Shown piece after piece: positions 10 through 38,605 of a stretch of DNA of 38,735 nt (the stretch's first letter is position 1; each line of letters opens with the position of its first letter). Source of the stretch: a virus; the IMG/VR virus record IMGVR_UViG_3300042922_000585, positions 1 through 38,735 of that record. One strand, 5' to 3'. The translations under genes were made by a program, and so were the position numbers. The notes under the pieces are model-generated. The model did not search any database and was not told the DNA's origin. It saw nothing but the letters and a program-made list of their open reading frames with translations.

Positions 10-114
10 TACACAAGCTCATTCCTATGTTACCTCTTTTATATATAGCTATTACGGTCTATGCTGCCATGAACTGTTCATAGGCAATCTGGAGCTGTCT
101 GTTGTTTGTCTTGG
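10..114. repeat. Left copy of 105-base perfect direct repeat; half att site (attL-like)
   Basis: Every base from 10 to 114 matches 38631-38735. Identity starts at TACAC and breaks one base further left, where this end reads GAAGCAGAT and the right end reads a phage half-site. The repeat includes the end of the tyrosine recombinase gene. The break lies about four bases from the centre of the right-hand palindrome, as expected if this end is a recombined attachment site (host half on the left, phage half on the right). With only nine foreign bases visible, an assembly artefact at the contig end is a real alternative. Confidence 0.75.
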
Positions 115-1060
115 CATATATTTCAGTTGTATTTATCTGAGTATGCCCCAGGATCTGCTGGATCAATGTTATGCTCATGCCACGCTGCAGGGCTAAAGTA
201 GCAAAAGTATGACGGAAAATGTGAGGACTGATAGATTTCTTTATGCTGGTTCGTAAAGCAATCTTTTTAATTATTTTTTCAATACCTGACTTCGCCAGTG
301 GTCTAAACGGTGAGCGCTCTCCAAGAAACAGACTGTCGCTGTCTCCTTCTCGGCTATTCAAATATTCCTGCAGGTATAATTTACATTTGACTGAGAAGTA
401 GACTGTTCTATATTTATCACCCTTCCCATGAACAACCAGGCTGTTACTATTCCAGTTTATATCGGATACTTTGGCTTGTACAACTTCGGACACTCTACAT
501 GCGGTAGAATATAAGAATTCAACCAATGTCTTTTCCTTGATATCTTCACACACATTCCTTACTGTCTCCAGCTCTTCAGCTGTTAAATGCTCCCTGAGAT
601 TCTTAACATCAACCTTTATATTTTTTAATCTGATTGTTGGGTCCTTTTCAATGATTTCTTCCTTGTACAGCGTACCAAAGAAGCTTTTAAGCACACTCAT
701 TTTGCCGTTAATAGTAACTTTAGCATATGGTCGTTCTGATTGTATAATGGCAAAATAGCGCCTGATATCATTGACAGTAATTTGATTGACAGGCTTTAAT
801 ACATACTTACTAAACATTGATAGTTCGTCTCTGTATCGCTGAATAGACTGTTGTGAAAGTCCTTCAAGTGACTTTAGTCCTAAGAAAAATGTTATTTTCT
901 CCGGTAAGTCTGATACCATTAAGCTTGTCTCATTAGATGTTAAAGTGTACTCATCCAGGTTCCTTTCTAAGATATCTTTGATAATCATGTTATCAACTTC
1001 GAACCTCTCCTGGATCTCTGACATAATTTTGATGATTACTAATTCTTTGTGGTCCTCCAT
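59..1060 (-). CDS. Tyrosine recombinase (XerC/D-like phage integrase family)
   Basis: Site-specific DNA strand exchange through a tyrosine nucleophile. The 333-residue protein has an N-terminal core-binding (SAM-like) domain at about 55-140 and a catalytic domain with the full set of active residues: R189 (ACRVSE), K213 in the beta hairpin, H280 and R283 (HIFRH), H306 (LGHT) and Y315 (EIYAK). The ATG at 1060 is preferred because AGGAGG lies six bases upstream; the GTG at 1066 overlaps that site. It converges on the serine integrase across the attP candidate, so it belongs to the element rather than the host flank. An integrase of this kind is redundant beside a large serine integrase; its substrate is unknown. 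It may act in dimer resolution, DNA inversion, or be an acquired extra gene. Confidence 0.92.
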   Translation of the reverse strand: MEDHKELVIIKIMSEIQERFEVDNMIIKDILERNLDEYTLTSNETSLMVSDLPEKITFFLGLKSLEGLSQQSIQRYRDELSMFSKYVLKPVNQITVNDIRRYFAIIQSERPYAKVTINGKMSVLKSFFGTLYKEEIIEKDPTIRLKNIKVDVKNLREHLTAEELETVRNVCEDIKEKTLVEFLYSTACRVSEVVQAKVSDINWNSNSLVVHGKGDKYRTVYFSVKCKLYLQEYLNSREGDSDSLFLGERSPFRPLAKSGIEKIIKKIALRTSIKKSISPHIFRHTFATLALQRGMSITLIQQILGHTQINTTEIYAKTNNRQLQIAYEQFMAA

Positions 1061-1094
1061 AAACACCCTCCTGTAAGTGTTATTTTTCCTGAAT

Positions 1095-2421: not shown

Positions 2422-2463
2422 TAGCTCTTATCAAATATAATTTTAGATAAGAGCTATATTTTT
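2422..2463 (+). terminator. Intrinsic terminator after small membrane protein
   Basis: TAGCTCTTATC (2422-2432) pairs perfectly with GATAAGAGCTA (2446-2456), followed by TATTTTT. It starts at the stop codon of the membrane protein gene and its T run touches the end of the convergent gene at 2462, so it may stop transcription from both sides. Confidence 0.75.
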
Positions 2464-3493
2464 ATAGTGATTCACTAGGCAATGTTAATTGTAGTGCTTC
2501 TTTATCCTCGTTTAGTTTTTGGATTAAATTTTCTCTATCCTTTTCTCCATTCTGACTTTCAATCAGTTCTTTTACACAGTTTATTAGCCCTGGCAGACCA
2601 TTAGTTTGAACGCTGTATTCAAAACCAACTATTTTAAATTTCATGTTAGTTCCAAAAAGTGCACCTATGATTAATCCAATTATTAAAACATCTTTAACTG
2701 CACCTTTTAACTGTACAGGCCCTTTAGATTGCACACTAATTTTTAAAATAATTTGTTCGGCGTTCACTTGTATCTCTTGAGAATATTTGTTTATATATTG
2801 CATTATTTCATCATTGTCGTTTAAAAACTTAAGCATTTTACTATATGGAATATTCTTTTTTTTATTAACTTTATAAGTGAAGAAGGCTTCATCACCCTTA
2901 ATGTAAAATTGCGAAAGCATTCTATCAATATATACACTGTAATCGTCTGCGCAGGATACAGGCCCATAAGAGAATATAATTCTATGGAGAAGTGGATCCC
3001 AATCATTTCTTTTAAACGAAGTGATCCATTTTACTCTTCTTCTCTTTTTCAATATTTGTTTCTTTTCTTGTCCTTCATAATGAGCGTCTAAAATGTCTTC
3101 AAAGTCATATTCTTCTTCGTATATATACATTTCATCATCTAAGAATTGACCAATATGTAGCCATTGTGATTTTTCGTTAGGAATTAGTACTATGTCGCCT
3201 TTTTTGATTTCGTTTGCAAATTTTAATATTTGTTTTACTGGATAACCAGGCTTATCAACTTTTGGATAATACTTTGCAACCAGTAGTCTTAGCTCTTCTT
3301 CTTCGCAATTTTTAATTAGATTATTGTCGCTTATTTCATCCCATTCAATCCCGACATATCCTTCGTTAACAAAGCTATCGTAATATAATCCACCTTGTGT
3401 TCTTATAAACCAATATCTTCTACTTTCAGAAAATACATCAATACCAAGTTCTTTTAAAATAACATAATCTTCTTCCGTTAGTGATAACCCCAT
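2462..3493 (-). CDS. PUA/EVE-like domain protein with C-terminal hydrophobic segment; defence-type accessory gene candidate
   Basis: 343 residues. The N-terminal part looks like the EVE/PUA-like fold found at the front of Mrr-type and other defence proteins: WFIRTQGG at 28-35, GYVGIEW at 45-51, KGDIVLIP at 98-105, WLHIGQ at 111-116 and VKWI at 154-157. Residues 268-282 (VLIIGLIIGALFG) form one membrane-length hydrophobic segment, followed by a charged tail. No nuclease motif is visible in the C-terminal half. It stands alone beyond the late-operon terminator with its own promoter and a GAGGGG ribosome site, the usual form of a gene expressed in the lysogen. Inferred role: modified-nucleic-acid sensing or phage defence. 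This rests on domain resemblance only. Confidence 0.7.
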   Translation of the reverse strand: MGLSLTEEDYVILKELGIDVFSESRRYWFIRTQGGLYYDSFVNEGYVGIEWDEISDNNLIKNCEEEELRLLVAKYYPKVDKPGYPVKQILKFANEIKKGDIVLIPNEKSQWLHIGQFLDDEMYIYEEEYDFEDILDAHYEGQEKKQILKKRRRVKWITSFKRNDWDPLLHRIIFSYGPVSCADDYSVYIDRMLSQFYIKGDEAFFTYKVNKKKNIPYSKMLKFLNDNDEIMQYINKYSQEIQVNAEQIILKISVQSKGPVQLKGAVKDVLIIGLIIGALFGTNMKFKIVGFEYSVQTNGLPGLINCVKELIESQNGEKDRENLIQKLNEDKEALQLTLPSESL

Positions 3494-3667: not shown

Positions 3668-4930
3668 TTATAATCCAAAGCCAATAATATTGTGAATTAT
3701 TCTTCCATCACCTTTCAATACCATAGCATCAGAGTTGTTCATGAATGTTGAACCGCCTCCATCAACTGATAATGCTATATCATAATCACAGTCTTTTACC
3801 AAATCGAGAAGATCATATCTTGAGTCAACACTATGATAAATTGCAGTCCTTGCCATCAGATATAGTTTATTTACATTTTTGTTGTACCCTATGACTGTCT
3901 TATTTGCCATACGCAAAACATCAGCGTATGCTCCACTAAATCCCTCTGCAGCAGGATCATATTTGAAAGAACTATCAAGAGTGTTTCTAAGTCCAACTCC
4001 ACCAATTGCAATTTTTACCTTTTTCAAATCCAGTTCTGACAAATTTTTAATGCGTTTCATCTCAACGCTGTTGTCATTGTAGACTATAAAAACGCTCTGC
4101 GGTTTTGGCAAGTGATTTGCAGCTTCCTGATAAACCTTTCCGTTTGCAAAAAGTATTGAAGTTGAATATTTCTCTGTACCACTTAAGTTTGCATTCCAGA
4201 AAAATGTACCATTTGTACAATATGGCTCTTCTATTATTGTATTTTTCTTATTAACTATCTTGACTCCGAAGTCTGGAACATCACCTTTGAGTTGATAGGT
4301 GCCGTTTGTTGTAACGGAATATTCTACATTGAGTATTTTATTGTTAATTCCAAAATACTCTTTTAAACCGTTTACTATGCCCTCTGCGCATGACTGTCTG
4401 AATTCATCTGTCATGAGAAGTCTAGCTTCTGTAAGATTGTCCATGAATGCACATTCGCAAAGGCATGCAGTCATCTTAGCATTCTTAATTATGTAAAACT
4501 CTTCTCCAATAATTCCCCTGTCTCGTAATTTTGTAGCTTGTACCAAATATTTATGAATAGTTTCAGCAAATATTTTATCTACTGGATTTGTAGGGTAGTA
4601 ATATGTTTCTGTACCGTTTTGACTTCCCCACTCACCATTTAATGCGTTAGCATGAACACTGACTAATACTATTTTATCATATAGAGTTCTCACTTTTTCA
4701 TATAGATCATTGACTCGAATTATTCTTTCAGCCAAGCCAATTTCTCTTTTTTCAGTAGTGGTAAATATAACATCAATGTTTTCATCCTGTTCAAATAATG
4801 AATCAATTTTTCTAACTACAGAACGATTAAATTCATTTTCACGCATGAAAGTTCCATCAGGAAAGAGAGGCGTTCTCTTTCCTGATGTATCCAAACCATG
4901 GCCAGCATCCAATATTACTAAGTAATTCAT
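3668..4930 (-). CDS. Endolysin: N-acetylmuramoyl-L-alanine amidase fused to a phosphodiester glycosidase (NAGPA-like) domain
   Basis: Cuts the peptidoglycan amide bond for host lysis. Residues 1-195 are an Amidase_3 domain with all zinc and catalytic residues: H11 (DAGHG), E31 (RENEF), H93 (SVHAN) and E159 in CECAFMDN. Residues 200-420 resemble the phosphodiester glycosidase family (PF09992), with the diagnostic DGGGST at 390-395 and a preceding GG-rich turn. That family removes GlcNAc-1-phosphodiesters. In a lysin it could act on a wall glycopolymer or serve for binding, which is inference. There is no signal peptide, so export needs the holin. The start is four bases after the holin stop, suggesting translational coupling. 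Confidence 0.9.
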   Translation of the reverse strand: MNYLVILDAGHGLDTSGKRTPLFPDGTFMRENEFNRSVVRKIDSLFEQDENIDVIFTTTEKREIGLAERIIRVNDLYEKVRTLYDKIVLVSVHANALNGEWGSQNGTETYYYPTNPVDKIFAETIHKYLVQATKLRDRGIIGEEFYIIKNAKMTACLCECAFMDNLTEARLLMTDEFRQSCAEGIVNGLKEYFGINNKILNVEYSVTTNGTYQLKGDVPDFGVKIVNKKNTIIEEPYCTNGTFFWNANLSGTEKYSTSILFANGKVYQEAANHLPKPQSVFIVYNDNSVEMKRIKNLSELDLKKVKIAIGGVGLRNTLDSSFKYDPAAEGFSGAYADVLRMANKTVIGYNKNVNKLYLMARTAIYHSVDSRYDLLDLVKDCDYDIALSVDGGGSTFMNNSDAMVLKGDGRIIHNIIGFGL

Positions 4931-9268: not shown

Positions 9269-10660
9269 TTACACTGCCCCCATTGCTATGTTTGTGCCTC
9301 TTAATTTACTTTCGTTCTGCATAGGATCATATAAACCTCTTGCCAATGTTCGACCGTCTAAATTTACAACTAACTCTATTTTCTGCGAATTTTGATTATG
9401 GCTATTAACATTGTTTAATGTTAATGTTTTAAGAATGTCTACTATGCTTTGTTTGTCCTGAGCTTTAACTATTTCTTCACCCTTGTGAACCTCTGCCACA
9501 TAACCATCGTAAGGCACATAAGAAAGACCACTCGCATGACTGCCGTCAAGTTGATTCTTTCCTCTGTTTCTGCTACCTTTACTTCCAGTTCCTTTATTTA
9601 CATTCTGACTAAAATCAAAATCTTTTCCTCGTGTATCCTCTTCATCAAATGAATGCAGCCATTCAATAGCTAATTTAATTCCTTCAGATAATCCATTGAA
9701 TACATCTGTTACGCCTTTTACCACGTCACTGATACCTTTAAACGCTGATTCAACTGCTGCTTGAATTTGAGGCATATTAGGCTCTATCCATTCCCATAAT
9801 GCTTGCAAAGCTGGAAGTAAGCTAATGCTAAACAGGTCCCAAACACCACCTACAACAGTCGAAATTGCTCCAAATACGGTTTCGAATGTTTTCTTGATTT
9901 CTGGCATATTTTCCATTGCCCATGTTAAGAATTGAGTTAAAATAGGCAATAAAGACGTTCCAAACTCTAAAAATAAACCGTTCGCCATAGTTTTTGCAGA
10001 GTCGAGCATATCACCAAATTTCGCACCGGCTTCAACACTCTCATTACTCATAACTCCACCCATAGCAACAGCTTCATCTTTGAGTGCTTTTATTCCTTCC
10101 GCTCCACCGTTGAGCATTGGTGCCAATTCTGCATATGACTTTCCAAATATATCATTAGCAATAGCATTTCGTTCAGTAGTATCTTCTATGTCAGCTAGAG
10201 CCATAATAGCAGCATCAAAAGCTCCGTCACTTGTCATGTTTCTTACATCAAGTTTAAGTCTTGAAAAAGCTTCGGATGCTGTTTTACCACCTTCACTTGC
10301 ATCTGCAAAACCCTTCTGCGCTTTAATCATTGCACTTTCGAGTGTTGCTGTTTCCATGCCTGATAACTTAGCAGCATAAGCATATTTCTGAAACTCTTCA
10401 GCTGTAACTCCTGTACGCTGTGCCATATCGTCAATCTCACCCATGGCATCTGCTGTCTTAGTAGCAACACCAAGCATGGCACCACCAACAACACCGGCAG
10501 CAGTTCCTATACCAGCAGCCCATTTACCGGCTGTTTTAATTCCTGCACCTAATTTAGAGCCAAGTCCTTCAGCTTTATTCTCAGTCTTAGAAATACTTTC
10601 TTCAGCTTTGGATGAATCTACAAGTATGGTTCCAAATAGTTTAAAAATCTCGATAACAAT
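9269..10660 (-). CDS. Tail tape measure protein, short, with apparent ATT start
   Basis: Sets tail length and passes through the tail during DNA entry. About 463 residues if started at ATT 10660. The N-terminus (IFKLFGTILVDSSKAEES, then SKTENKAEGLGSKL) is characteristic of TP901-type tape measures. It is followed by hydrophobic Ala/Gly-rich stretches and the usual C-terminal GLSYVPYDGYVAEVHKGEE. The frame contains no ATG, GTG or TTG before ATG 10477, which would remove 61 conserved residues and has no ribosome site. AAGG lies five bases before ATT 10660, which overlaps the TAA of the tail chaperone. Either a rare AUU start, a point change of ATG, or a further frameshift from the chaperone. 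Confidence 0.88.
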   Translation of the reverse strand: MVIEIFKLFGTILVDSSKAEESISKTENKAEGLGSKLGAGIKTAGKWAAGIGTAAGVVGGAMLGVATKTADAMGEIDDMAQRTGVTAEEFQKYAYAAKLSGMETATLESAMIKAQKGFADASEGGKTASEAFSRLKLDVRNMTSDGAFDAAIMALADIEDTTERNAIANDIFGKSYAELAPMLNGGAEGIKALKDEAVAMGGVMSNESVEAGAKFGDMLDSAKTMANGLFLEFGTSLLPILTQFLTWAMENMPEIKKTFETVFGAISTVVGGVWDLFSISLLPALQALWEWIEPNMPQIQAAVESAFKGISDVVKGVTDVFNGLSEGIKLAIEWLHSFDEEDTRGKDFDFSQNVNKGTGSKGSRNRGKNQLDGSHASGLSYVPYDGYVAEVHKGEEIVKAQDKQSIVDILKTLTLNNVNSHNQNSQKIELVVNLDGRTLARGLYDPMQNESKLRGTNIAMGAV

Positions 10661-11255
10661 TACCCCCTTCCGCTGTTAAATAGGGTTATAATTTCTTTAA
10701 CATCTTTCAAGATTTCCTCATCACTTTTAATTACTTTAGGCTTTATTTGCAATTTAAAATCTTCAAAGCTAATGCGCTGATAAGGTATCCAACGTTGAAA
10801 TAAAAGCTCTTCCTCTCGCTTTTCGTAAGCATAATCAATGAAAGGAAGAGCGTCTTCTATGTCTAAATTAAATAAATAATCTAAGGAATGATATCTCCTT
10901 AGTAGCAGGTCTATTGTTTCTTTGTAATCAAACCTGCCAATAAAGTAAAAAAACGCTTTAGGTCATTCTCCTTGCTAAGCGTTTCTATGTTATCGACAAA
11001 TATAACTAAGTCTAATTTTTTTACCTCATCAGCAGTCATTTCAAATGGACCTGAAAGCACTTCATAAAAAGCCTGCTCGCATTTATGTTGAGATAAGAAA
11101 TCTAGCATACTAAGCACACCTTCAATTCCAGCATCCTCAATATTCATTTTCTCCTCAATAGCTTTTTTAATAATAGGCTTAATTTCTTCTTTTAAATTTG
11201 CTTTTGAGATTGCTCTTAAGGCATTAAATACATCTGGTGTTTGTAACTTTCTCAT
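10660..11255 (-). CDS. Tail assembly chaperone, -1 frameshift product (gpG-T type)
   Basis: Long form made by slipping at seven consecutive T (minus strand 10953-10947), where codons TTT TTT can re-pair one base back. The first 103 residues are shared with the short form. The shifted frame then runs 95 codons (starting YFIGRFDYK) to TAA 10662-10660. This second frame has no start codon of its own yet is open, uses normal codons and fills the gap to the tape measure. In many tailed phages the two forms load the tape measure with tail tube protein. Slippage is inferred from the sequence. Confidence 0.8.
10911..11255 (-). CDS. Tail assembly chaperone, short form (gpG type)
   Basis: 114 helical, charged residues between tail tube and tape measure, the standard place for this chaperone. 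It ends in LAGLITKKQ eleven codons past the slippery run. The short form would be the main product, with the frameshifted form as a minority. Confidence 0.82.
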   Translation of the reverse strand: MRKLQTPDVFNALRAISKANLKEEIKPIIKKAIEEKMNIEDAGIEGVLSMLDFLSQHKCEQAFYEVLSGPFEMTADEVKKLDLVIFVDNIETLSKENDLKRFFTLLAGLITKKQ

Positions 11256-16895: not shown

Positions 16896-18620
16896 TCAAC
16901 TATTAAGCCATTTACTTGCAGCTCCAGCTTTTTCCATGCTTTTCAAGAGCCTTACACATGCAAACACACTTGCATCAAATAAATCTATTCTCATTACACC
17001 GCCATCACCATCAACTTTTTCATACTGAATCATATCGTCTGTTTTTTCTATAGCTCTTACGTTTTGCACACAATATTCATATGCTTCTGAGTGCAGGTAA
17101 TATAGATTCCCATCTTTTGCTTTTTTCTCTATTCGTCTAAATCCTTGTGACTTATTAATGTACAACTGTGGTTCGTCTATTATTACGAAGCCTGCTTTTT
17201 TCATTCCAAGATAAAATTCTTGACCGAATTTTCTATCAAATCCCACCTGTTTTATTTTAAAGCCTTTCCTCCTCATACCTATAAACCAATTGATTATATC
17301 AGAGTAGTTAACGGTAGGCGTATTACACATTGTAAGCCATCCGTCGTCTTGCCATCCAAACAAGGGTATGTTGTCTTCGTCAGCTTTTTGATGAGCTGCA
17401 ACTATTGGGAAGAAGGCATGTGTTATTACAATGTCTATATCTCCGTAAGTTCCATATAAAGCACTTGCTGTTAAATCGTAAAGCTTAGATAAGTCACCGC
17501 CCCCAAACCACTCAATCGGTAATTTTGCAAGCTCTTCCAATGTCCAGTTATGCTTCTTATCACTGTTTTTAAATTCATCTATGTTGAAGTAAGCCTTCAT
17601 GGCACTTGTGTATATGTTCAAAGATTTAGCTAAAAATGACTTCCTTTGTTGCGGATCATTCTGTGCCTGGTTTGAATCATTTAATAATTCTTGTGCTGAT
17701 ACTGATACATTATAATTAGGATTTGCTTTCTCGTGTTCTAATGGATTTGTATAGTCAACATTTCCCTCTTTATCTTCATCTGCCTTTGCAATAAAGATAA
17801 ACAACTGGTCATCTTTCACAGTCTCATTTAATACCTTCTGACAATATTTCATTCTGTTATAGCAAAATGAATTCATGTTGTCACCAGCTGTTGTAATGCC
17901 TATACACAAACTGTTTCTATATGCCTTTCCTGATTCTTTAATTGTATTATATTGGCTTGCATTTTTATATAAGTGCAATTCATCTAATATTTGAATCAGA
18001 GTGTTTAAACTATCCATTCTATCGCTGTTTCCTGCGATAGTTTCAATCCTTAAATATCCATCACCCAAATCTCCACTGATTGAGTGTTCTTGGTTATTAT
18101 CCAGGATACGGAAGTTATCTTCCTCTCCCATTTCCTTTAGGTTATAATTTATAAAATTAAAACTCTGCAACGCTTGTTTTAATAAAGCACCGACAATAAC
18201 TATCTCGGCTCCGGACTTTCTTTCGAGCAATCCCAATCCCCAAGCTAAAGCACTCATAAAAGGCGTCTTGCCATTTTTACGAGCAAGCATTATAAATGCT
18301 TCTTTATACTTTCTTAAAATAGTTCCTTTATGGAAAAACCCTAATAAATTGTAGACAACAAATTTCTGCCATGGTTCTAATAAAAAAGGCTTACCTCTTA
18401 AAGGATAGCCGTTCATATCTTCACCCTTTTGATGCACAAAGGTTTTTTCAATAATTCCTATTACAAATTCTGCATCTTTAGGATTAAAATCATATGCTGG
18501 ATTTTCTAAATCCTTTTTAAACCTAGCACACATCTGAATAGTTTCAACGCAAGCTACTTTTTTGCCGCTTAATACTTTTTCTACATACTCCATTACAATG
18601 TCAAAATTTTTATGTTTCAT
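16896..18620 (-). CDS. Terminase large subunit, HK97 type
   Basis: DNA packaging motor and nuclease, 574 residues. The ATPase domain has Walker A ARKNGKT at 113-119 and Walker B ILDELH at 211-216 (D213, E214), followed by coupling motif TTAG at 243-246. The nuclease domain starts near [10 protein letters not shown] (373-382), with further acidic sites at VGFDRKFG and DLFDASVFA. The start overlaps the small subunit stop by four bases. With the P27-type small subunit and upstream HNH nuclease, this indicates cos-type packaging. Confidence 0.95.
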
Positions 18621-18967
18621 TTTAAGCCCTTAAGAACATCCGATAATTTTGATTTACCCGTTACTTCTGCCGTTACCGCTTCTAAAGATTTAGGATTAAG
18701 GCAAAGTCTATCGGAGTATGCGAGTATGTCTTTTCTTAATGTTTCTAACGTCGCAACAATGGGCGATTTTTTACTGCCACCTTGGTCGGTTTCGACCTCA
18801 TATTTATAATTACTATCTTCAAATTCTTTAGTCAATTTTAAATACTGAAACACTAAATCTGAATATATATCAATAAGCCGATTATATTGCGGTTTATGGA
18901 TTCCAAGCTTATTCATATCTGTTATTGTTGCACGTTTGATTGTTTCTTTACTTGCTGTCTTTGCCAC
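18617..18967 (-). CDS. Terminase small subunit, P27 family
   Basis: 116 residues from GTG 18967 (AGGAGG seven bases upstream). Helical, with the P27 pattern: [21 protein letters not shown], then [35 protein letters not shown]. Recognises phage DNA for packaging and recruits the large subunit. Four-base overlap with the large subunit gene. Confidence 0.88.
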
Positions 18968-19023: not shown

Positions 19024-19071
19024 CCCCCTCCGGTCCTTATCATAATAATTATTTACTTGAAAGGGAGGGGG
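19024..19071. other. GC-rich inverted repeat, candidate cos-region element
   Basis: CCCCCTCC (19024-19031) and GGAGGGGG (19064-19071) form eight perfect G-C-rich pairs around a 32-base AT-rich loop, between the small terminase and HNH genes. The right arm overlaps the end of the HNH gene. Such contrast with the AT-rich surroundings, next to a terminase and HNH pair, fits a terminase binding or cutting region. No cut position can be read from sequence alone. Confidence 0.35.
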
Positions 19072-19336
19072 GATATATTCTATTAACCCATTCCTTTCCT
19101 TTAGCAGTAAGCTCGTTAGTATTTCTATCATGCATACTATCATGATGCTTGCTACATAAACTAATTAAGTTCTTGCTTACATACCTTAACTCTGGATAGT
19201 TGCTAGCTGGTTTTACATGATGAACTGTTGTTGCTTCAGTAGTCTTCCCGTATCGCTTACATTCCCTACACAAATACTCATCACGCTTTAAAACAATAGC
19301 TCTCTTTTTTATCCATCTCTTGTCTTTGTAATTCAT
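19049..19336 (-). CDS. HNH endonuclease, packaging-associated
   Basis: 95 residues from ATG 19336 (AGGTG upstream); the earlier ATG at 19366 lies inside a terminator. HNH residues are clear: C23 and C26 (CRECK), H39-H40 (VHH), N56 (KNLISLC), and C61, H64 and H65. An HNH protein beside the terminase is a hallmark of cos phages with 3' overhangs, where it works with the large subunit to cut cos. It is the first gene of the late operon. Confidence 0.88.
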   Translation of the reverse strand: MNYKDKRWIKKRAIVLKRDEYLCRECKRYGKTTEATTVHHVKPASNYPELRYVSKNLISLCSKHHDSMHDRNTNELTAKGKEWVNRIYPPSLSSK

Positions 19337-19351
19337 CAAATCACCTGCAAT

Positions 19352-19376
19352 AAAAAAGCACCTCATTAGAGATGCT
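19352..19376 (-). terminator. Terminator after the Ltp-repeat gene
   Basis: On the minus strand AGCATCTC (19376-19369) pairs with GAGGTGCT (19364-19357), one G-T pair, four-base loop, then TTTTTT. It follows the Ltp gene stop by about 15 bases and precedes the first late gene. Late transcription must therefore start just after it or read through by antitermination. Confidence 0.75.
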
Positions 19377-19390
19377 TGAATTATATTTAA

Positions 19391-19978
19391 TTAAAGACCT
19401 ATTTGATCTACTGCGTAAGTAGCTTCTTCACTTGTGAAACCTTCATATTCCAGTTGTTCAATTAAACCACTTCTTGAGAAAGGCATAATATCTAAGTAAG
19501 ACTTGCCTTTTAATACAGCTTGTTCTTTCCAGTCAACACTTATTTTGTTTACCGCATAAGTTGTGTCATCATTACTAAATCCTTCATACTCTAACTGCTT
19601 TACTAAGCCAGATTTAGAAAAAGGCATAATATCTAAATAACTTTCAGCTTTAGCAACTGCATTCTTTTGCGATAAAGTTTCGCTTGAACTGTCTACAACT
19701 GGTGGTTTAACTGTACCCTTATCATTTATGCTTGCTGTATTTGTTGATTGGTCCCAGCCTACATCCTTGCCTAATGCTTCAGATACGGCTCTAAGTGGCA
19801 CATAAGTAGTACCATTGTAAAGTATGTTATCTGCATTAATCTTTGTGCCATTTACTGTAATGTTTACCGAGTTGTATACAACCTCAATTGTCTTTGTTAT
19901 TGTGTCCCCCAAAGCCGTAGTCATTAATAACGTCAGAATTACTGTTCCAATTACTAAATACTTTAATGCTTTTTTCAT
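19391..19978 (-). CDS. Secreted stalk-domain protein with two Ltp repeats; superinfection exclusion candidate
   Basis: 195 residues. A signal peptide spans 1-24 (KK, hydrophobic core, TALG) with no lipobox cysteine. Residues 37-85 are a copper-amine-oxidase-N-like stalk domain (VNGTKINADN, YVPLRAVSEALG). Two near-identical 40-residue repeats follow (107-146 and 154-193), each with SYLDIMPFS.SGL..QLEYEGF and TYAV, the Ltp (PF07553) helix-turn-helix repeat. In Streptococcus phage TP-J34 the two-repeat lipoprotein Ltp blocks DNA entry by targeting the tape measure. The gene has its own promoter, operator-like palindrome and terminator and lies between early and late operons, as expected for a lysogeny-expressed exclusion factor. 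It lacks the lipid anchor, so retention may rely on the stalk domain. Confidence 0.85.
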   Translation of the reverse strand: MKKALKYLVIGTVILTLLMTTALGDTITKTIEVVYNSVNITVNGTKINADNILYNGTTYVPLRAVSEALGKDVGWDQSTNTASINDKGTVKPPVVDSSSETLSQKNAVAKAESYLDIMPFSKSGLVKQLEYEGFSNDDTTYAVNKISVDWKEQAVLKGKSYLDIMPFSRSGLIEQLEYEGFTSEEATYAVDQIGL

Positions 19979-19990
19979 TTGTTAATACCT

Positions 19991-20035
19991 CCCTTTTAGT
20001 ATTAATATTATATACCAAAAGGGAAATCTTAACAA
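19991..20035 (-). promoter_or_regulatory. Promoter and operator-like palindrome of the Ltp-repeat gene
   Basis: On the minus strand TTGTTA (20035-20030), exactly 17 bases, then TATAAT (20012-20007). The -10 sits in an imperfect palindrome, 19991-20023, with outer arms CCCTTTT and AAAAGGG and inner GTAT and ATAC. Repressor binding there would block transcription. It differs from the CI/Cro operators at 36 kb, so a different protein, possibly of the host, would read it. Confidence 0.65.
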
Positions 20036-20094: not shown

Positions 20095-20128
20095 AAAAAA
20101 GGCCTCGTGAATACCATGAGGTCTTTTT
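20095..20128. terminator. Bidirectional terminator at the end of the early operon
   Basis: GGCCTC (20101-20106) pairs with GAGGTC (20118-20123), extended by two inner pairs, with T runs on both strands (A run 20095-20100; T run 20124-20128). It follows the late-regulator gene by about 85 bases and separates early transcription from the Ltp gene. Confidence 0.8.
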
Positions 20129-20213: not shown

Positions 20214-20642
20214 TTATTTTAAATTCTCCAAATATTTATCATGAATCACCTTCCTGGGATAACTCTCATCATACCTTTCTATCCTCCTGGCTATCTGAAG
20301 CCAGTTCAGGCCGTCGATATAACGTAAGCCAAATACCCTTCTTGTCCTGCTGTCCGGAATAGTGTTGATGAACTCCTCTATCTCCAGCTTCATTTCAGTA
20401 CACTTTGCCTTACGCCTATAAAGCACGCTGTTAAGCTTATCAAGCTGCTGTTCTCTTTTATCTTCCTCAAGTCCGGTAATAACAAATGACCGTTCCACGT
20501 ATGGGAAATGCTTTGATGATCCTTTTACCGAATCAGTTACTACTTGGGTGCATTTGTTTCTAACTCTTTCAATCCTCTGTTCCAATTCCTTAATTTCCTT
20601 TTGCAAGTCACAATACTGTTTAAGTAGTTCTTTTATTGTCAT
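20214..20642 (-). CDS. Late transcription regulator, DUF1492/RinA-ArpU-like, sigma region 4 type helix-turn-helix
   Basis: 142 residues from ATG 20642, preceded by GGAGG; the longer reading is out of frame with the gene it overlaps. Residues 1-30 and 65-105 are helical and charged. The C-terminal part (IPDSRTRRVFGLRYIDGLNWLQIARRI) is a sigma-70 region 4-like helix-turn-helix. Proteins of this kind close the early operon of many Firmicutes phages and switch on packaging and structural genes. Position here, last before the early terminator, fits exactly. The site it acts on is probably near 19340-19390 or upstream. Confidence 0.8.
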   Translation of the reverse strand: MTIKELLKQYCDLQKEIKELEQRIERVRNKCTQVVTDSVKGSSKHFPYVERSFVITGLEEDKREQQLDKLNSVLYRRKAKCTEMKLEIEEFINTIPDSRTRRVFGLRYIDGLNWLQIARRIERYDESYPRKVIHDKYLENLK

Positions 20643-20823
20643 CCATAACCTCCTCAGTTGTAATCTTAATCTTTGCTGTCCTGTAAGTCGGTTTCCAAGC
20701 TCTTTGTAAAAATCGCTCTTCTCCGTCTTGAAGTTTTTCTTTGTTTGCATAAGACTTGTAAATATATTCTGTTCCATCAGCCAGACTGCAGATAATCGCA
20801 TATCTGAATTTAATTTCTTTCAT
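20620..20823 (-). CDS. Small hypothetical early protein
   Basis: 67 residues. Start ATGA overlaps the previous stop and the end overlaps the late-regulator start by 23 bases, so it is translationally coupled on both sides. Beta-rich N-terminus (KFRYAIICSLADGTEYIYKSY), basic C-terminus. No family recognised. Confidence 0.65.
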   Translation of the reverse strand: MKEIKFRYAIICSLADGTEYIYKSYANKEKLQDGEERFLQRAWKPTYRTAKIKITTEEVMDDNKRTT

Positions 20824-35736: not shown

Positions 35737-35751
35737 AGTTTTCTAAACTTT
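35737..35751. promoter_or_regulatory. Operator copy 1 (at the end of the Cro-like gene)
   Basis: AGTTTTCTAAACTTT, an imperfect dyad identical to the copy at 36037-36052 but located downstream of the cro-like gene rather than at a promoter. It could work as a roadblock or loop partner. Confidence 0.6.
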
Positions 35752-37126: not shown

Positions 37127-38605
37127 ATGGATTTAAGTAATTTAAGGGTATGCATGTACTTAAGAAAATCAAGGGAAGATCGAGATAGTCCAACTGATGA
37201 GCCTATTGAAATTACATTGCAAAGGCATGAAAAAACATTATTGGCTTATTCTAAAGAAAACCATATAAGCATTTCAGATATCAAAAAGGAAGTCGTATCC
37301 GGAGAGAGTTTGTCCAAAAGACCCAAGATGCTCGAAATGCTCGAAGAGATAGAGGACGGATTATACAATGCCATTCTTGTTATGGACATTGATAGACTTA
37401 CCAGAGGGGGGATGCTGGATCAAGGTATTATATTAAATACATTAAAAGATAATAATGTAAAAATCATTACACTTGATAAAATATATGATCTTAATGATGA
37501 TCTTGATGAAGATATGGTAGACTTCAGTGCTTTTTTTGCGCGTAAAGAACTCAAGATGATAAAGAAGAGGCTAAATCGTGGGAGAATGAAAAGTGTGGAA
37601 GAAGGCAGTTATATTGGAGGGTGTCCGCCATACGGGTATAATTATAATAAATTAACCCAACAATTAGAAGTGAATGATAGTGAAGCAGAAATAGTAAGGA
37701 CTATATTTGATTTATATGTTAATCAGGATCTTGGTGATATGAAAATTGCCACCATGATGAGAAACTTAAATATTAAAACAAAGCACAACAAAACCTGGGA
37801 TAAAACTACTGTAAGAAAAATAATAACAAACCCTATATACATCGGGAAAACCAGATGGGGTAAAACATCAATCAAGCTGCCATTGAAAGAATATGACGGA
37901 AAACACGAGCCATTAATCAGTGAAGACATTTACTATAAAGCCCAAGAACTCACTAAAAATAGGTATATTCCAAGGGTTAAAGATAGTTATGTTGAGAGAA
38001 ACCCTCTGTCTGGACTTATAAAATGCACATGTGGAAGGACCATGTCCTTAAGAACATCCAAGAAACAACCGGATTCACTGAGATGCCCGGTAAATTGCGG
38101 CAATAAAGGCTCTTATTTAAATCCTATTGAAAACAGACTAATAAGCGAGTTGTATTATCAATTAAAAGAAATATATTCAGAATTACTGTATAAAAAACAG
38201 CCGAAGAATAAGAAAAATAAATATGAGGCCTTGATCAAATCAAACAAAACTGAATTAAATAAAGCTATTGAACAACGTAATAAGTTGTTTGATTTATTGG
38301 AGCAGGGAATTTATGACAATAATACCTTCCTGGATAGAATGAATTTATTAAGTGAAAAGATATCTCTGTTAAATAAATCAATTGATGATATGGAAGCAGA
38401 ACAGGATAATTTAAATTCGTTAGTATTAAAAATAGATAGAATCCCACAGATTGAAAGTTTTATAGACTTTATCGAAAATATTTATTGGAAAAGCAACGCA
38501 AAAGATAAGAATGCTTTTTTACATGAAGTTGTAAAATACGTTAACTATAAAAAAACTGAAAGGGGCACAGATCTTTTTAAATTAGAAGTAGTCTTAAAAT
38601 TGTAA
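37127..38605 (+). CDS. Large serine recombinase (prophage integrase)
   Basis: Integrates and excises the phage. 492 residues. Resolvase domain at 1-150 with catalytic S15 (LRKSRED) and DIDRLTRGG (R90, R93). Recombinase domain at 165-290 (IGGCPPYGY). Zinc ribbon with C300, C302, C320 and C324. Long coiled-coil at 345-435, the motif that controls attP/attB pairing. No recognisable excisionase gene is adjacent. Ends five bases before the attP candidate, the usual arrangement. It is transcribed with the immunity genes. Confidence 0.95.
   Translation: MDLSNLRVCMYLRKSREDRDSPTDEPIEITLQRHEKTLLAYSKENHISISDIKKEVVSGESLSKRPKMLEMLEEIEDGLYNAILVMDIDRLTRGGMLDQGIILNTLKDNNVKIITLDKIYDLNDDLDEDMVDFSAFFARKELKMIKKRLNRGRMKSVEEGSYIGGCPPYGYNYNKLTQQLEVNDSEAEIVRTIFDLYVNQDLGDMKIATMMRNLNIKTKHNKTWDKTTVRKIITNPIYIGKTRWGKTSIKLPLKEYDGKHEPLISEDIYYKAQELTKNRYIPRVKDSYVERNPLSGLIKCTCGRTMSLRTSKKQPDSLRCPVNCGNKGSYLNPIENRLISELYYQLKEIYSELLYKKQPKNKKNKYEALIKSNKTELNKAIEQRNKLFDLLEQGIYDNNTFLDRMNLLSEKISLLNKSIDDMEAEQDNLNSLVLKIDRIPQIESFIDFIENIYWKSNAKDKNAFLHEVVKYVNYKKTERGTDLFKLEVVLKL

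What the first reader, a model, noticed from the sequence alone, without database searches (positions are those of the whole stretch)
19391..20035. Ltp-repeat protein as a self-contained superinfection-exclusion gene
Two near-identical Ltp repeats, known from a lipoprotein that blocks phage DNA entry, are here joined to a stalk domain and a non-lipid signal peptide. The gene has its own promoter, operator-like palindrome and terminators on both sides. The change of anchor would be a new design of exclusion factor.
Basis: partly seen in the sequence, partly recalled or inferred. Interest (0 to 1): 0.7.

Follow-up and report, generated by a model that had tools for sequence, protein, structure and literature searches.

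The report
Prophage surface gene with swapped parts
A temperate phage of Clostridia-type bacteria carries a stand-alone gene for a secreted protein that probably stops other phages from injecting their DNA, and its relatives swap the front or back half of the protein at the same genome position, in one case replacing the likely DNA-entry plug with a DNA-cutting enzyme.

Summary
At 19391-19978 (-) lies a 195-aa protein with a signal peptide without lipobox, one PF07833 stalk domain and two PF07553 Ltp repeats. It sits between two terminator-like hairpins, behind a near-consensus promoter inside a 57-bp palindrome that is unique in the window. The repeats are about 60% identical, not near-identical.

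The Ltp half is modelled like the solved exclusion protein Ltp of phage TP-J34 (rmsd 1.1 Å). Superinfection exclusion is the best reading but is untested. The 'new anchor' claim is weak: Ltp repeats already occur behind lipid, transmembrane, SLH, LGFP and choline-binding anchors.

New here: the gene is a chimera joined in the linker. Its front half is 65-69% identical to front halves in other phages. Its back half is 76% identical to a transmembrane-anchored Ltp gene in the same slot (just before HNH-TerS-TerL) of a related phage. Another related phage has, in that slot and with its own terminators and promoter, the same front half on a staphylococcal-type nuclease. Trees reject a single origin of the stalk-Ltp architecture. 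I read this as a slot where phages swap surface proteins, at least two with payloads suited to blocking DNA entry. New variant of a known kind.

The parts
19391..19978 (-). CDS, 195 aa: signal peptide + stalk + 2 Ltp repeats
19907..19978 (-). signal peptide, residues 1-24, predicted SPase I site ALG|DT; no cysteine in the protein
   Evidence: read from sequence; hydrophobicity; related modules keep small residues at -3/-1
19727..19897 (-). stalk domain PF07833 (residues 28-84)
19685..19726 (-). linker (residues 85-98) holding the recombination joint: DNA similarity to L235/L229 ends near nt 260-270 of the gene, similarity to L187 begins at nt 295
19544..19669 (-). Ltp repeat 1 (PF07553)
19400..19534 (-). 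Ltp repeat 2 (PF07553)
20007..20035 (-). sigma-70-like promoter TTGTTA-17-TATAAT
19979..20035 (.). 57-bp operator-like palindrome spanning -35 to RBS
20096..20128 (-). terminator-like hairpin upstream, after the late regulator
   Evidence: (I9), sequence
19356..19377 (-). terminator-like hairpin downstream, before HNH
20214..20801 (-). ArpU-like late regulator (phrog_36), upstream border of the slot
19049..19366 (-). HNH endonuclease, downstream border of the slot
18617..18967 (-). terminase small subunit
16896..18620 (-). terminase large subunit (used to find relatives)

Best explanation
It is a lysogenic-conversion gene ('moron') for superinfection exclusion. The protein is exported by its N-terminal signal and stays outside the membrane, held by the stalk domain or by slow release through the wall. 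Its two acidic three-helix Ltp repeats sit where incoming tails open, bind the tape measure protein and stall DNA passage, as proposed for TP-J34 Ltp. Its own promoter and flanking terminators let it be expressed apart from the silent early and late operons, under an unknown repressor that binds the palindrome. The gene arose by joining an SP-stalk front half to an Ltp back half inside the linker. The same slot in related phages holds alternative surface proteins, including the same front half on a thermonuclease. Shown here: anatomy, fold, chimera, slot exchange. Inferred: surface retention, expression in the lysogen, tape measure binding, exclusion.
For: PF07553 x2 and PF07833. PHROG 4980 and 15667 'superinfection exclusion', 2.6e-35 and 6.3e-30. 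Model of residues 101-195 at pLDDT 96-99, best PDB match Ltp of TP-J34 (4eqq, rmsd 1.1 Å, TM 0.86-0.89 by target). Ltp part pI 4.4, matching the acidic Ltp type (PMC5137146). Temperate phage: CI-like repressor, M78 protein and two recombinases. Same slot with Ltp on transmembrane anchors in L187/L083 (76% identical Ltp) and L144/L145. Same front half in the same slot on SNase in L235, confirmed by L301, where the SNase 3' end runs into a hairpin, HNH, TerS and a TerL 80% identical to the window's. Insulated unit also in L235 (terminator 7912, promoter 7951, terminator 8898) and L230 (hairpins on both sides). Of 40 related phages, 11 have an exported or membrane-like ORF just before HNH, against 2 of 295 late ORFs.
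Against: No phenotype is known. PF07553 is widespread in Firmicutes and Actinobacteria, often with no sign of a prophage, and CbpL uses it in a host-colonisation protein. No wall anchor is proven; a cleaved signal peptide would release the protein. TP-J34 ltp lies in the lysogeny module, not here. The palindrome has no counterpart in relatives, viral contigs or 391 genomes, so regulation is unexplained. Other slot occupants (Pmp3, unknowns) need not be exclusion factors.
Confidence: 0.62

Rival explanations
1. Lysogenic conversion for another surface role: the Ltp repeats bind a wall or host-environment ligand and the protein helps the lysogenic bacterium (adhesion, wall modification), not exclusion.
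For: Ltp repeats in many cellular genes with no phage context. CbpL carries an Ltp domain and acts in colonisation (PMC5137146). Stalk domains are common in secreted Clostridia proteins.
Against: The closest Ltp half is in a phage contig at the same phage slot. PHROG assigns exclusion families. The nuclease alternative in the slot fits defence better than adhesion.
Confidence: 0.2
2. A lytic-phase gene: made after induction, next to the late operon, to protect the producing cell from re-infection or to act on the envelope before lysis.
For: Same strand as, and directly in front of, the late module. No CI-type motif (TTTTCTAAACTTT) near its promoter: exact copies lie only at 35739, 36040 and 36072.
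Against: Own promoter and terminators on both sides separate it from the late operon. The same insulation recurs in L235 and L230.
Confidence: 0.12
3. Passenger cargo without present function.
For: The slot is variable among relatives.
Against: Intact frame, high-confidence fold, conserved repeat cores and intact expression signals.
Confidence: 0.06

Closest known systems
Ltp of Streptococcus thermophilus phage TP-J34 (PDB 4eqq; PF07553)
   Same: Two three-helix Ltp repeats, acidic, exported, temperate phage; fold match rmsd 1.1 Å.
   Different: No lipobox; a folded stalk domain replaces the serine-rich spacer; gene lies between the late regulator and the packaging genes, not in the lysogeny module.
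Transmembrane-anchored Ltp genes of related phages (L187/L083, L144/L145)
   Same: Same slot upstream of HNH-TerS-TerL; Ltp part 76% identical in L187.
   Different: N-terminal transmembrane helix instead of signal peptide plus stalk.
SP-stalk-Ltp proteins L003, L192, L193
   Same: Same order of domains, 46-50% identical over the full length.
   Different: Trees reject common descent with the window protein for the stalk (p 4.9e-5) and the Ltp half (p 0.015): assembled separately.
SP-stalk-SNase protein of L235/L301
   Same: Front half 65% identical, same slot, same insulation.
   Different: Payload is a staphylococcal-nuclease domain with complete catalytic residues plus an Ada-type zinc domain.
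CbpL of Streptococcus pneumoniae
   Same: Non-lipid protein carrying an Ltp domain (PMC5137146).
   Different: Excalibur and choline-binding modules, host gene, one Ltp domain.
SNIPE (membrane nuclease, PMC13190303)
   Same: Works like the proposed scheme: membrane-sited, meets the tape measure protein and DNA at injection.
   Different: GIY-YIG nuclease facing the cytoplasm, DUF4041; no sequence relation tested or claimed.

Membership tests
PF07553 Ltp domain family | PF07553 repeats over the curated cut-off | tested here: met
   114.4 bits against cut-off 23.2, two stretches
PF07553 Ltp domain family | pair of three-helix (HTH-like) bundles as in 4eqq | tested here: met
   helices at 102-193, pLDDT 96-99; Foldseek 4eqq rmsd 1.1 Å
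TP-J34-type Ltp superinfection exclusion lipoproteins | lipobox with lipidated cysteine | tested here: not met
   no cysteine in the 195 residues
TP-J34-type Ltp superinfection exclusion lipoproteins | gene in the lysogeny module, transcribed in the prophage | tested here: not met
   position: lies between late regulator and HNH/terminase; transcription could not be tested
TP-J34-type Ltp superinfection exclusion lipoproteins | blocks phage DNA entry through the tape measure protein | not testable with these tools
   needs plating and DNA-entry assays
PF07833 stalk (copper amine oxidase N-terminal) domain | PF07833 over the curated cut-off | tested here: met
   45.8 bits against cut-off 24.2
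CbpL-type choline-binding Ltp proteins | choline-binding repeats | tested here: not met
   only PF07553 and PF07833 found
Known PADLOC defence systems | match to a PADLOC model | tested here: not met
   0 families for the window protein; the L235 nuclease variant matches PDLC01096 'SNc+LTD' at 8e-36

The most novel reading that the evidence does not exclude
The SP-stalk front half is an exchangeable export chassis. Clostridial prophages keep it at an insulated slot and load it with different weapons against incoming DNA, here a tail-plug (Ltp) and in a relative a secreted nuclease (SNase), so that surface exclusion evolves by swapping payloads and anchors at one locus.
Probability: 0.35. Interest if true: 0.72.

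Novelty: new variant of a known kind. Interest (0 to 1): 0.5.

Why it matters
If true, one genome slot gives a ready catalogue of prophage surface-exclusion proteins for Clostridia, where few are known. It would make a testable link between two entry-blocking strategies (plugging the tail and cutting the DNA outside the membrane) that share one delivery module. It also shows that PF07553 genes cannot be found by lipobox alone.

Tried and rejected
Operator identity: the palindrome has no counterpart in viral contigs, in 391 Clostridia-class genomes or upstream of relatives, and is unlike the CI/Cro-region motif, so no regulator is named. RNA element at the 5' end: no Rfam match in the window; the hairpin arms straddle the start site, so a DNA operator is likelier. 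'Already a named defence system': no PADLOC hit. 'Unique architecture': rejected, L003, L192 and L193 have it, and one more full-length match exists (G384). 'Single descent of that architecture': rejected by AU tests. Plasmid relatives: none. Literature on stalk domains in phage exclusion: nothing relevant. Literature on prophage thermonuclease and superinfection: nothing relevant.

Full report
What is there. The window is a whole 38,735-base IMG/VR virus record of a temperate phage: CI-like HTH protein, M78 peptidase-like protein, a large serine recombinase and a tyrosine integrase. Its packaging and capsid genes resemble Geobacillus GBSV1 and Ruminococcus gnavus phages at 64-68% DNA identity. 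The gene at 19391-19978 (-) encodes 195 aa with two PF07553 repeats and one PF07833 stalk domain. It has no cysteine. Its N-terminus is a signal peptide with a plausible signal peptidase I site. The same site pattern (small residues at -3 and -1) recurs in the related front halves AYS|E, SFA|E, VLA|N and VLA|D, which favours true cleavage over a membrane anchor; this is inference, no predictor was available.

Expression signals. Reading the minus strand, the order is ArpU-like regulator (phrog_36), terminator-like hairpin 20128-20096, promoter 20035-20007, RBS, gene, terminator 19377-19356, HNH, TerS, TerL. Counts of such signals are no higher than in shuffles, so the order matters rather than the number. 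The palindrome over the promoter is beyond chance: unique in the window, 0 in 30 simulated windows. It is unlike the motif TTTTCTAAACTTT, whose only exact copies are at 35739, 36040 and 36072 near the CI/Cro region. I could not identify its regulator.

The Ltp half. phmmer finds 4eqq (TP-J34 Ltp) at 1.3e-10. The AlphaFold model of residues 101-195 has pLDDT 96-99 and matches 4eqq with rmsd 1.1 Å and target-normalised TM 0.86-0.89; no other PDB fold reaches E 0.001. The stalk part is poorly modelled (pLDDT 36-69), so nothing is claimed about its structure. The Ltp part is acidic (pI 4.4), as in TP-J34, where a negative surface meeting the tape measure protein is the proposed mechanism (PMC11480721, PMC5137146).

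Anchors vary throughout the family. Relatives show lipoprotein signals, N-terminal transmembrane helices and zinc-ribbon plus transmembrane fronts, three SLH domains (L038), LGFP repeats (L054) and TM2 (L013), besides the published CbpL. TP-J34 Ltp without its lipid anchor was reported to exclude additional phage species (PMC3952083). So a non-lipid Ltp protein is neither new nor a problem for function.

The gene is a chimera. At DNA level, gene positions -35 to about 260 match L235 (70.5%), and an inner part of this stretch matches L229 (75%); positions 295-587 match L187 (75%). The joint falls in the linker between stalk and repeats. In trees the stalk's nearest neighbours are L229 and L235 and the Ltp half's nearest is L083/L187. 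Forcing the four SP-stalk-Ltp architectures together (with L270 for the stalk, whose front half is 91% identical to that of L003) is rejected for the stalk (p 4.9e-5) and the Ltp half (p 0.015). The architecture was therefore assembled at least twice. These are quick trees on about 100 columns, so exact branching is not claimed.

The slot. L187 and L144/L145 have an Ltp gene with a transmembrane anchor directly before HNH-TerS-TerL. L235 shares the replication genes of the window phage (DNA polymerase 60%, VirE-like 51%). In the same slot it has the same front half (65%) fused to an SNase domain (PF00565, 5.2e-26) and an Ada-type zinc domain, with catalytic residues equivalent to D21, R35, D40, E43 and R87 of staphylococcal nuclease visible in the alignment (residue roles from general knowledge). 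Its gene too lies between two terminators with its own 11/12 promoter. Contig L301 carries the SNase 3' end, a hairpin, HNH, TerS and a TerL 80% identical to the window's, which fixes the slot. L230 has the front half (69%) on another C-terminus, between a phrog_36 regulator and TerS, again with hairpins on both sides. L300 shows a second, differently stalked SNase protein (SNase 75% identical) near the lysis genes of a provirus. Of 40 related phages with enough sequence, 11 have an exported or membrane-like ORF just upstream of HNH, against 2 of 295 downstream late ORFs (crude hydrophobicity rule, related phages not independent).

Mechanism, and what is inferred. A moron for superinfection exclusion fits best: export, an entry-blocking repeat domain and insulated expression in a temperate phage. 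The exchange with an exported nuclease suggests that the slot's common theme may be DNA arriving from outside. A membrane nuclease acting with the tape measure protein at injection (SNIPE, PMC13190303) shows that cutting at entry is a workable defence, though SNIPE is unrelated and faces the cytoplasm. Not shown: expression in the lysogen, retention at the surface, binding, phenotype.

Verdict. A real gene with the anatomy described; a PF07553 protein but not a TP-J34-type lipoprotein; function probable but unproven. The anchor change is ordinary within the family. The shared front half with interchangeable payloads at one insulated slot is the part a specialist might not expect.

Noticed in passing
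window 2462-3493 (-): 343-aa protein matching PADLOC candidate defence family PDC-S02 (9.6e-20, N-terminal part) and phrog_10226 of unknown function; between the lysin and the left-end integrase.
   Followed up: partly
window 3668-4930 (-): Endolysin that joins an Amidase_3 domain to a C-terminal NAGPA (phosphodiester glycosidase) domain; a NAGPA-like neighbour also lies beside the stalk-SNase gene in L300.
   Followed up: no
window 59-1066 (-) and 37127-38605 (+): A tyrosine integrase at one end and a large serine recombinase at the other end of the same record; which one integrates the phage was not examined.
   Followed up: no
L235:7938-8894, L301:1-94, L300:5566-6708: Exported stalk-thermonuclease proteins in phage contigs, one type in the window gene's slot; the L235 protein matches PADLOC PDLC01096 'SNc+LTD'.
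   Followed up: partly
window 35739, 36040, 36072: Three exact copies of TTTTCTAAACTTT around the divergent repressor/cro-like genes, probably the repressor operators.
   Followed up: no
L175:4913-5125: A Pmp3-type small membrane protein gene occupies the slot upstream of HNH in another related phage.
   Followed up: no
L282, L286, L270: Phage-contig proteins with a signal peptide, a stalk and a short C-terminal Cys-rich segment (YHYDxxCNGGTYWxV...CxKC) resembling the zinc tail of the L235 nuclease.
   Followed up: no
window 9269-10680 (-): The tape measure frame appears to start upstream of the listed ATG and to give only about 470 aa, a short tape measure protein.
   Followed up: no
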